49,010 nucleotides of DNA, from the NCBI GenBank assembly GCA_031281265.1, contig JAITFO010000005.1, forward strand, positions 1 to 49,010, in the 5' to 3' direction. This DNA is from Candidatus Fibrimonadaceae bacterium. Its GTDB lineage: Bacteria; Fibrobacterota; Fibrobacteria; Fibrobacterales; Fibrobacteraceae. Within the stretch, counting starts at the first letter, position 1. Each line of letters starts with the position of its first letter. Below, piece by piece: positions 40,171-42,745 of this stretch. Below the pieces are notes generated by a model. The model ran no database searches, was not told the origin of the DNA, and was given only the letters and a program-made list of their open reading frames with translations. The translations under genes and the position numbers were made by a program.

Positions 40171-40903
40171 AAAAGACTTCTATTTGATGAAAAAAAGCGG
40201 AAAAGCTATATCAATGGTGACCGTTTACGATGCTGCTTTCGCCAGAATGGCGGACGCAGCCAAAATAGATATGCTCCTCGTTGGGGATTCCGCCGCAAAC
40301 GTAATGCTTGGGATGAATAGGACTGCCGATATATCGATGGAAGCGATGTGTTTATTCACAAATGCCGTAAAACGAGGTGCATCAAATAGTTACGTTATCA
40401 GTGATATGCCTTTTGGTTCCGATGCAGAACCAAAAACCGCTGTGCTAAACGCAAAAAAATTGTTGGAAGCGGGAGCAGATGCGGTAAAAATAGAAGGACT
40501 TCCGTTAAAATCTCTCGAAGCGATAAGAGAAAATGGTATAGAAGTAGTTGGTCACCTAGGTTTACTCCCCCAAACAGCAAAAAATTTCAAACAAGTTGGG
40601 CAAAATGAAGAAGAAGCGGAGAAAATTTTGGAGCAAGCGCAAATTTTGGACGGTTTAGAACCCTGTGCAATAGTTTTAGAGCACATTCCAAGCTCCCTTG
40701 GGCAGAAAATATCACAGGCTATAAACGCCCCAACTATCGGTATTGGAGCGGGTAAGCACACAGACGGGCAGGTACTTGTGATGCACGACCTACTTAAGAT
40801 GCATCCTTTTAAACTTCCACCCTTCGCAAAATGCTTTGCAAACTTTTGGGAAGCCGGAGTGAGTGCTTTTTGCGAGTATAAGAATTGGATAAATGAAAAA
40901 TAA
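40163..40903 (+). CDS. panB: 3-methyl-2-oxobutanoate hydroxymethyltransferase
   Basis: PanB makes ketopantoate in pantothenate synthesis. The 246-residue protein shows MVTVYDAAFARMADAAKIDMLLVGDS with the metal-binding Asp, VISDMPFGS, the catalytic Glu region VLEHIPSSLGQKIS, and TIGIGAGKHTDGQVLVMHDLL. The N-terminus begins at GTG 40163 overlapping the recO stop; ATG 40187 would be too short for the family. panD lies 4.4 kb away on the other strand. It ends before an AT-rich stretch. Confidence 0.93.
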   Translation: MDKKDFYLMKKSGKAISMVTVYDAAFARMADAAKIDMLLVGDSAANVMLGMNRTADISMEAMCLFTNAVKRGASNSYVISDMPFGSDAEPKTAVLNAKKLLEAGADAVKIEGLPLKSLEAIRENGIEVVGHLGLLPQTAKNFKQVGQNEEEAEKILEQAQILDGLEPCAIVLEHIPSSLGQKISQAINAPTIGIGAGKHTDGQVLVMHDLLKMHPFKLPPFAKCFANFWEAGVSAFCEYKNWINEK

Positions 40904-40955
40904 TTTTACATTTGTAAAAAAAATTAAAAAAAATTAAAAAAAAGTAATTTTTTTG

Positions 40956-40984
40956 TTGCCAAAGTCAAAAAAAAAATCTATATT
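40956..40984 (+). promoter_or_regulatory. Strong promoter of the Lys/Ala repeat gene
   Basis: TTGCCA (40956-40961), 17-bp spacer, TATATT (40979-40984). Upstream, 40915-40955 is an A-tract-rich stretch with repeated AAATTAAAAA units that could act as an UP element. The leader is about 30 nt with an AAAAGGAG site. Confidence 0.7.
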
Positions 40985-41020
40985 TGTCATTGACATTCAC
41001 AAACAAAAGGAGTACTCCTC

Positions 41021-41137
41021 ATGGCAACAAAAACCGTTATCAAAAAAGCAGCCCCTAAGAAGGCCGCTCACAAAAAAGCAGCTCCTAAAAAAGCAGCTCC
41101 TAAAAAAGCTGCTCATAAAAAAGCTGCTAAAAAATAA
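41021..41137 (+). CDS. 38-residue Lys/Ala-repeat protein (histone H1-like tail)
   Basis: The product is MATKTVI followed by six repeats of KKAA with P or H between, ending KKAAKK. It resembles the C-terminal tails of histone H1 and the chlamydial or Bordetella H1-like proteins, which bind DNA without a fixed fold. AAAAGGAG precedes the ATG, a full sigma-70 promoter lies upstream, and a rho-independent terminator follows by 17 bp, so it is a single-gene unit and is likely well expressed. A role in nucleoid or RNA binding is inference from composition. The bL25 tail in this window has a similar composition. It is too short to be found by common gene-length limits. Confidence 0.8.
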   Translation: MATKTVIKKAAPKKAAHKKAAPKKAAPKKAAHKKAAKK

Positions 41138-41154
41138 CGTAACATTGCTCACAA

Positions 41155-41188
41155 GCCTCCAACCGAAAGGTTGGAGGCTCTTTTTTTT
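41155..41188 (+). terminator. Rho-independent terminator of the Lys/Ala gene
   Basis: GCCTCCAACC GAAA GGTTGGAGGC, a perfect 10-bp stem with a GNRA-type loop, then TC and eight T. GTTGGAGGCTATTTTTTTATC at about 41192-41212 repeats the 3' half plus T-run, a local duplication that abuts the lnt stop codon. Confidence 0.9.
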
Positions 41189-41212
41189 ATCGTTGGAGGC
41201 TATTTTTTTATC

Positions 41213-42745
41213 TCATTTCAAGTATTTACGAAAAAGAATTACCGCAACCACCATAACCAGCGAAAAAATAAACAAAACTTGCTCAACATAATCCCCTACA
41301 AAATAATAAGGAGTGGAACGAGTTGTCAAAGGTATGTTGTTGACTATTATTTTTTGGTCAAAAAGCTCGGTTTTCTCTATTATTGTCCCATTTGCCGTTA
41401 TAAACGCACTGATTCCCGTATTTGCCGCCCTAACAACGCCTATTCCGCTCTCCACCGCATGGGCACGCACCAAATTAAAATGCTGATACGGGGCAATACT
41501 TTTATAAAACCAGCCATCATTTGTGATATTGGCTATGAATTTTGCCCCTTTTCGCTTTGCTTCCCTCAAAATACTGCCATAAATGGCCTCGTAACATATA
41601 AGAGGGCTAAAATCCCCGGGTTGCCATATATATATGCTATCTCCGGGCGAAAAATCTCCTCCACCTAAATCCACGTAGTTAATAACCGGAAAAACATTGT
41701 CAAAGGGCATTTTTTCGCTAAAAGGCACAAGATGTATTTTTCTGTACTCCGGCATAGGGTAACCGGAGCCGAATAAAAAAGCTGAATTGTACACGCCATA
41801 CCTTCTATTCCTCTTATTTTCTTTTGCCCTATCCCAAGCTCTGCTCAAAGAGCCTATTACAATAGGCGTTTTATGTTTTTTCGCATAATTTTCCAAAAAT
41901 ACCTGTTCCTTAAAACGTATATCTATAAAGTCTGGAATGGCGGTTTCTGCAAATAAAACTAGAGCCACGGTATCAGGCTCTAATGTGTTGAACAAATCCC
42001 AGGTCTGCTTCATAACAGAATTGTAATAATCCTTGCTCCATTTTTTTGCTTGGGGAACGCTGGGCTGCACTACAGCAACGGTTAAAACCTCTTCTTCGGC
42101 GTCAGATTTATTTTTTTCACAGGCTATAACATTATACCCGCCAATATATAAGATTGTTGCCAATATAAAAGGCATAAAAAAACGAATCTTCTTATTTGGG
42201 GTAGCTGACGCCAAATACATATTTGAAGCTATTATTATGATTGATACTCCAAAAACCCCAAAAAGCGCATAGGATTGTATAAGTTCAAGGCTGTTCCCAA
42301 ACACAAGCCCCAAAGAAAGCCAGGGAAAACTCATATCGCCTTTGGCTCGCAAAACCTCAATGCCTCCCCAGAAAAAAGGAAAGAGACATACAAGCGGGAA
42401 TTTTCCAAAGCGAACTTCTCTTATTTTAACAAAAACATAAGCGCATAAAACCGTGAATAGGCTTAAAAAAGCAACGGCCAAAAAAAGCCCGGAAAATATA
42501 AGAGCTGGTGGTGCTACATCGACAACATGGTAAAGCCAGTATATACTGATAGCGTTGAATAAAAAAGCACCAAAGGAGCTTGCTACCAAGGCTCCCTTTA
42601 AATTTGCCGTTTTTAAAACGTAAAACCAGGGAGCTAGGAATACAAGGGCTCCGGGCCCAAGTGGAAAAGGCGGAAAAGAAAAAGCCATAAGCCCCCAACT
42701 GGCGAGCGAAAGCAGAATGGCTTTTATTGTACTCATTGTACTCAT
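41213..42745 (-). CDS. lnt: Apolipoprotein N-acyltransferase
   Basis: Lnt adds the third acyl chain to lipoproteins at the inner membrane. The 510-residue product has six N-terminal helices, then a nitrilase domain with the triad Glu in LLFAETAIPDF, Lys in RKIHLVPFSEKMPF and Cys in FSPLICYEAIYG, then a final helix. ATG 42745 lies 2 nt after the stop of the TPR gene and is preferred over an overlapping ATG at 42769. The first codons contain a 9-bp duplication, ATGAGTACA twice, giving MSTMST. The triad predicts an active enzyme serving the several lipoproteins in this window. Confidence 0.92.
   Translation of the reverse strand: MSTMSTIKAILLSLASWGLMAFSFPPFPLGPGALVFLAPWFYVLKTANLKGALVASSFGAFLFNAISIYWLYHVVDVAPPALIFSGLFLAVAFLSLFTVLCAYVFVKIREVRFGKFPLVCLFPFFWGGIEVLRAKGDMSFPWLSLGLVFGNSLELIQSYALFGVFGVSIIIIASNMYLASATPNKKIRFFMPFILATILYIGGYNVIACEKNKSDAEEEVLTVAVVQPSVPQAKKWSKDYYNSVMKQTWDLFNTLEPDTVALVLFAETAIPDFIDIRFKEQVFLENYAKKHKTPIVIGSLSRAWDRAKENKRNRRYGVYNSAFLFGSGYPMPEYRKIHLVPFSEKMPFDNVFPVINYVDLGGGDFSPGDSIYIWQPGDFSPLICYEAIYGSILREAKRKGAKFIANITNDGWFYKSIAPYQHFNLVRAHAVESGIGVVRAANTGISAFITANGTIIEKTELFDQKIIVNNIPLTTRSTPYYFVGDYVEQVLFIFSLVMVVAVILFRKYLK

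What the first reader, a model, noticed from the sequence alone, without database searches (positions are those of the whole stretch)
41021..41188. Very small Lys/Ala-repeat protein with its own strong promoter and terminator
A 38-residue product made of KKAA(P/H) repeats has a full sigma-70 promoter, an A-tract upstream region, a strong Shine-Dalgarno site and a perfect terminator. The set-up suggests abundant expression of an H1-tail-like nucleic-acid binder that ordinary gene calling misses.
Basis: partly seen in the sequence, partly recalled or inferred. Interest (0 to 1): 0.58.

Follow-up and report, generated by a model that had tools for sequence, protein, structure and literature searches.

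The report
Conserved tiny lysine-alanine repeat protein
A very short, strongly positively charged repeat protein that looked like a possible fluke is a real gene kept next to the same neighbour across a whole family of bacteria, probably made to coat DNA or RNA much as histone tails do; related kinds of protein are known from other bacteria.

Summary
The ORF at 41021-41137 (38 aa, KKAA(P/H) repeats, no Arg) is real and coding. All 12 of 12 searched genomes of its genus (Candidatus Fibrimonadales, Fibrobacterota) carry it between panB and a convergent lnt, with an invariant MATKTVI start showing only synonymous changes, in-frame length variation (38-97 aa), a near-invariant leader and a strong terminator. 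Outside the genus, 70 of 84 family genomes with a PanB hit have an intact KA-rich ORF (62-137 aa) downstream of panB, usually followed by an unknown ORF and a Ppx/GppA gene. The window copy is the shortest I found. Not supported as stated: the -35 box and upstream A-tract are not conserved; expression and 'missed by gene calling' are untested. Best explanation: a stand-alone, disordered, H1-tail-like polycation that neutralises and bundles nucleic acid, working like the repeats of chlamydial Hc2, BpH1 or AlgP; the window protein does not reach the Hc2 family cut-off. A polyphosphate role is a rival, weakened because four near-complete genomes carry the gene without PPK1. There are no binding, transcript or peptide data.

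The parts
41021..41137 (+). KA-repeat protein gene, 38 codons plus TAA stop
   Evidence: orthologues; synonymous-only changes in first 7 codons
40956..40961 (+). -35-like TTGCCA; clear in most but not all same-genus relatives (weak or missing in L030, L032, L033, L052)
40979..40984 (+). -10 TATATT, preceded by an A-run in the spacer; A8 and TATATT invariant in 11 aligned genomes
40991..41020 (+). near-invariant 5' leader TGACATTCACAAAC..AAAAGGAGTAYTCCTC with GGAG Shine-Dalgarno (41009-41012) inside AGGAGTACTCCT, a perfect palindrome here (41008-41019); its first 22 nt occur once in the own genome at up to 3 mismatches
   Evidence: hairpin weak, z -0.24
41154..41188 (+). intrinsic terminator: 11-bp GC-rich stem, GAAA loop, C, T8
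   Evidence: strong hairpin after the stop in 11 of 11 complete same-genus copies
40178..40903 (+). panB (ketopantoate hydroxymethyltransferase), the conserved upstream neighbour; exact start (40163, 40178 or later) not resolved
41213..42745 (-). lnt (apolipoprotein N-acyltransferase), convergent; neighbour in the genus and in g11 (G021)

Best explanation
A genuine, vertically kept gene for a small, disordered, lysine-only polycation. SHOWN (sequence): coding frame under protein-level selection, KK doublets spaced mostly 5 (or 5-6) residues apart, no Arg, no aromatic residue, calculated charge about +15 on 38 residues, no predicted fold, own start signals and own terminator, conserved place behind panB. 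INFERRED: the protein is made in quantity and binds nucleic acid through its evenly spaced KK pairs, without base specificity, neutralising and bundling DNA and/or RNA in addition to the HU-family proteins that the cell also has. Repeat number sets valence and can grow or shrink in whole units without breaking function, which would explain lengths of 38 to 137 aa.
For: 12 of 12 same-genus genomes have the gene (11 complete, G001 cut by a contig end). First 7 codons of 11 complete copies: variable sites 0, 0 and 4 of 7 at codon positions 1, 2, 3; all 11 end KK-TAA; four Ala, four Pro and two Lys codons are used. 70 of 84 other family genomes with a PanB hit have an intact KA ORF downstream. 0 Arg and 0 aromatic/Cys in 671 and 7033 codons. 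KK-to-KK spacing of 5 in 75% (same genus, n=106); 6 or 5 in 46% and 41% (other genera, n=1138); in shuffled copies spacings 4 and 5 make about 5% each. pI 11.1, charge +14.7. AlphaFold single-sequence model: no secondary structure, pTM 0.16. Pfam HC2 hits at E up to 1 in 11 of 11 members; 46 bits in one (cut-off 40), and two residue-shuffled copies give no hit. Three HU-family hits in the own genome. KPAA-repeat peptides of AlgP bind DNA, as stated in PMC9239181 (passages); Hc2 pentamers, PMC2848022 (passages).
Against: No expression, binding or localisation data. The window protein itself scores only 11.2 bits (E 0.41) against HC2, and all six other-genus members scanned score below the cut-off or not at all, so similarity to Hc2 may be convergence. 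G077 and G098 (99% and 96% complete) have the panB region without the gene and none was found elsewhere, so it may be dispensable. 38 residues may be too short to condense DNA well.
Confidence: 0.55

Rival explanations
1. Polyphosphate (or other polyanion) partner: the KA protein decorates or tethers polyP granules, as AlgP does, and the neighbouring Ppx/GppA gene reflects that link.
For: The KA gene is followed by an unknown ORF and a Ppx/GppA gene in 67 of 70 intact other-genus loci, including 58 of 58 of genus g2 (PF02541); in G120 the KA gene has left panB but keeps the unknown ORF and ppx. AlgP's KPAA tail is needed for polyP granule spacing (PMC9239181 passages). PPK1 is in the own genome.
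Against: PPK1 found in only 23 of 41 genomes; missing in G012, G014, G015 and G022 (98-100% complete), which all have the KA gene. PPK2 not tested. Terminator-like hairpins follow the KA stop in many loci, by eye. In the window's genome the ppx link is absent: its ppx is on another contig.
Confidence: 0.15
2. RNA or ribosome binder: a small basic protein that acts on mRNA/rRNA (translation or RNA compaction) rather than on the nucleoid.
For: Size and charge fit; Hc2 is reported to bind RNA and repress translation more than Hc1 (PMC2848022 passage).
Against: No ribosomal-protein match in Pfam or NCBIfam; composition fits DNA equally well.
Confidence: 0.2
3. Not a protein gene: the locus is a regulatory RNA or leader, or a slippage-prone DNA repeat, and the frame is incidental.
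For: Near-invariant 5' leader and strong terminator; short ORF; tandem repeats at DNA level.
Against: Variation confined to third codon positions in the N-terminus, in-frame length changes, conserved KK-TAA end; the downstream gene is convergent, so there is no attenuation target; no Rfam match at this place.
Confidence: 0.03

Closest known systems
Chlamydial Hc2 (HctB; Pfam PF07382 HC2) and Hc2-like proteins such as Bordetella BpH1
   Same: Protein built largely of lysine-rich pentamers (two basic plus three mostly Ala, also Val/Thr/Pro); length varies by whole repeats without loss of frame (PMC2848022 abstract and passages); one orthologue passes the Pfam cut-off and shuffling abolishes the match.
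   Different: Far shorter (38-137 vs 165-237 aa); no Arg at all, whereas Hc2 pentamers use Arg and Lys; the window member fails the Pfam cut-off; different phylum and gene neighbourhood.
AlgP and PhaF C-terminal KPAA tails (Pseudomonas)
   Same: Disordered Lys/Ala/Pro repeats compared to the H1 tail; DNA binding reported (PMC9239181 abstract and passages).
   Different: There the repeats are the tail of a protein with a helical N-terminal domain; here only about 7 fixed N-terminal residues precede them. The unit there is KPAA with single Lys; here KK doublets.
Lysine/alanine-rich stretches of other bacterial proteins (NCBIfam Rv3852 family; SigA/HrdB sigma factors)
   Same: Weak matches through Lys/Ala-rich sequence.
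   Different: No folded domain here; matches are low-complexity only.

Membership tests
HC2 / histone H1-like Hc2 (PF07382) | Score over the curated Pfam cut-off (40 bits) | tested here: not met
   Window protein 11.2 bits, E 0.41; one 95-aa orthologue 46 bits, a 97-aa orthologue 34.7 bits
HC2 / histone H1-like Hc2 (PF07382) | Tandem pentamers with two basic residues | tested here: met
   KK spacing 5 in 75% of same-genus intervals; description from PMC2848022. Mixed Arg/Lys use not met: 0 Arg
HC2 / histone H1-like Hc2 (PF07382) | DNA and RNA binding, nucleoid condensation | not testable with these tools
   needs biochemistry
Burkholderia-type histone H1-like protein (NF038053) | NCBIfam cut-off 80 bits | tested here: not met
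   window protein 14.2 bits, E 0.038
AlgP/PhaF-type granule tethers | KPAA tail attached to a helical N-terminal domain | tested here: not met
   only 7 fixed N-terminal residues; no fold predicted
HU/IHF (PF00216) | Bac_DNA_binding domain | tested here: not met
   no PF00216 match; the genome has 3 separate HU-family hits

The most novel reading that the evidence does not exclude
A family-wide, possibly abundant, arginine-free minimal linker-histone-tail protein of Fibrobacterota that works with no folded domain at all, whose repeat number tunes chromosome or RNA condensation, and which in most of the family sits beside a Ppx/GppA phosphatase gene and so may respond to polyphosphate or (p)ppGpp.
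Probability: 0.2. Interest if true: 0.65.

Novelty: new member of a known kind. Interest (0 to 1): 0.42.

Why it matters
If confirmed, it gives one of the smallest natural H1-tail-like proteins in bacteria, kept in one family with a natural series of repeat numbers (38 to 137 aa) behind the same gene. That series is a ready test of how the valence of a lysine-only disordered chain controls nucleic-acid condensation. It would also show that very short polybasic genes can be conserved and worth adding to annotation rules.

Tried and rejected
Chance ORF: rejected (simulation; conservation). Attenuator leader peptide: rejected because the next gene is convergent. Alternative overlapping frames (TTG 40953-41291 +, GTG 40997-41152 -): rejected because variation follows the ATG frame. 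SD-sequestering hairpin in the leader: the palindrome is conserved but the fold is no better than shuffles (z -0.24, -0.33, -0.74), so I do not claim it. Rfam: only two tRNAs in the window. The own-genome second hit (G000:C103) is the Lys-rich tail of a larger protein. PDB profile search: only weak SigA/HrdB low-complexity matches. Searches with low-complexity queries miss orthologues: the 38-aa query found 15 of 41 genomes and the profile 27 of 111, far fewer than synteny shows, so absence in such searches means little.

Literature: I searched the held library for AlgP/polyphosphate/nucleoid, lysine-rich/H1-like/KAP, Fibrobacter with histone-like/lysine-rich, HctB/AlgP/H1-like, Fibrobacter succinogenes with histone, the string AAKKPAAKK, Fibrobacter with polyphosphate, Fibrobacter with nucleoid-associated and a small-basic-protein set. 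No listing showed a report of this gene; only listings were seen, plus passages of PMC9239181 and PMC2848022. Most subscription journals and genome-record annotation were not searched.

Full report
WHAT IS THERE. The ORF 41021-41137 (+) encodes 38 residues, 15 Lys and 13 Ala, in KKAA(P/H) units. It lies 117 bp after the panB stop and 75 bp before the end of the convergent lnt gene (families). Simulated windows never gave an ORF near this composition (maximum K+A 0.50 in 200 simulations, against 0.74).

HOST. The two named PanB matches of 82% identity are Candidatus Fibrimonadales MAG contigs (L052, L053), placed by the taxonomy tool in Fibrobacterota, class Fibrobacteria. That such genomes come from termite guts is recalled and comes from no call. 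Genus labels g1, g2 and so on are the tool's; that g2 is Fibrobacter is my inference, not tested.

IT IS A GENE. Synteny through lnt recovered the ORF in all 12 of 12 genomes of genus g1: 11 complete copies, 38-97 codons, and one (G001) cut by the contig end. Over the first seven codons (MATKTVI) of the 11 complete copies, variable sites at codon positions 1, 2, 3 are 0, 0, 4 of 7; all end in KK-TAA. The 5' leader is nearly invariant in 11 aligned genomes (A-run, TCTATATTT, TGACATTCACAAAC, AAAAGGAGTAYTCCTC), while the -35 box and the upstream A-rich run are not. The 22 nt TGACATTCACAAACAAAAGGAG occur once in the own genome at up to 3 mismatches. A strong hairpin (-19.1 to -27.4 kcal/mol) follows the stop in 11 of 11, with differing sequences.

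FAMILY-WIDE. PanB was found in 96 of 111 family genomes. For all 84 outside g1 I fetched the stretch downstream of panB. Intact KA-rich ORF on the same strand: 70 of 84 (G092 counted once, by its second PanB fragment). Present but broken by an assembly gap or contig end: 5 (G048, G049, G062, G070, G121). PanB contig ends first, KA ORF found on another contig: 3 (G050, G054, G119). KA ORF away from panB: 1 (G120). Not found: 5 (G077 and G098 with the region intact; G013, G016, G118 with the contig ending soon after panB). The 15 family genomes without a PanB hit were not surveyed by synteny. The panB-to-KA distance is at most 600 bp in 65 of 70. A promoter-like pattern (TTGA.. then 15-19 nt then TATTTT-like) is present in 68 of 70; I wrote that pattern after seeing the sequences, so it is descriptive only.

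NEIGHBOURS. In 67 of 70 intact loci outside g1 the KA gene is followed by an ORF of about 115 aa without Pfam match and by a Ppx/GppA gene. In g1 and in G021 (g11) a convergent lnt follows instead.

WHAT THE PROTEIN IS LIKE. Across 671 and 7033 codons there is no Arg and no aromatic residue or Cys. KK doublets recur mostly every 5 residues in g1 and every 5-6 elsewhere. The predicted model has no secondary structure. Eleven of 11 g1 members hit Pfam HC2 at E up to 1, best 46 bits against a cut-off of 40, while the window member reaches only 11.2; one residue-shuffled copy each of the two longest gives no hit, so repeat order, not only composition, drives the match. Outside g1, HC2 scores are below cut-off or absent in all six members scanned. 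Shared ancestry with Hc2 is therefore unproven and convergence is likely.

MECHANISM. I infer a valence-tuned polycation for DNA and/or RNA, added to the three HU-family proteins of the host. The polyP alternative is attractive from the Ppx neighbour and from AlgP (PMC9239181, passages), but G012, G014, G015 and G022 (98-100% complete) have the KA gene without a PPK1 hit. PPK2 was not tested. The Ppx/GppA gene could instead act on pppGpp (recalled property of the family).

VERDICT. Real, conserved, and of a known kind: a new member of the lysine-rich H1-tail-like bacterial proteins, unusual for its minimal size, its Arg-free composition and its family-wide place behind panB. Function and abundance remain inferred.

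Noticed in passing
L155:1728-2084 and equivalents in 67 of 70 loci: An ORF of about 115 aa (MISEKDL...) between the KA gene and ppx/gppA, conserved in most of the family but with no Pfam match at E 0.1.
   Followed up: partly
L260 (G120): The KA gene is away from panB but stays upstream of the unknown ORF and ppx, so the KA-ppx block may move as a unit.
   Followed up: partly
window 41008-41019: The Shine-Dalgarno sits in a 12-bp palindrome AGGAGTACTCCT, AGGAGTATTCCT in most relatives; conserved in the genus but with no stable fold. A regulator site is possible.
   Followed up: partly
L002:363-1886 (-), own genome C103; similar in L010 and L016: A larger pentapeptide-repeat-like protein with a lysine-rich C-terminal tail (by eye); the only other weak hit of the KA query in the own genome.
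   Followed up: no
L004 and L015 (family f4), L275 (family f2): Stand-alone KA-rich ORFs in other families of the class at other gene neighbourhoods; orthology not shown.
   Followed up: partly
L190 (G049), L214 (G048): Assembly gaps (runs of N) fall inside the KA repeat, so assemblies may misreport repeat number.
   Followed up: no
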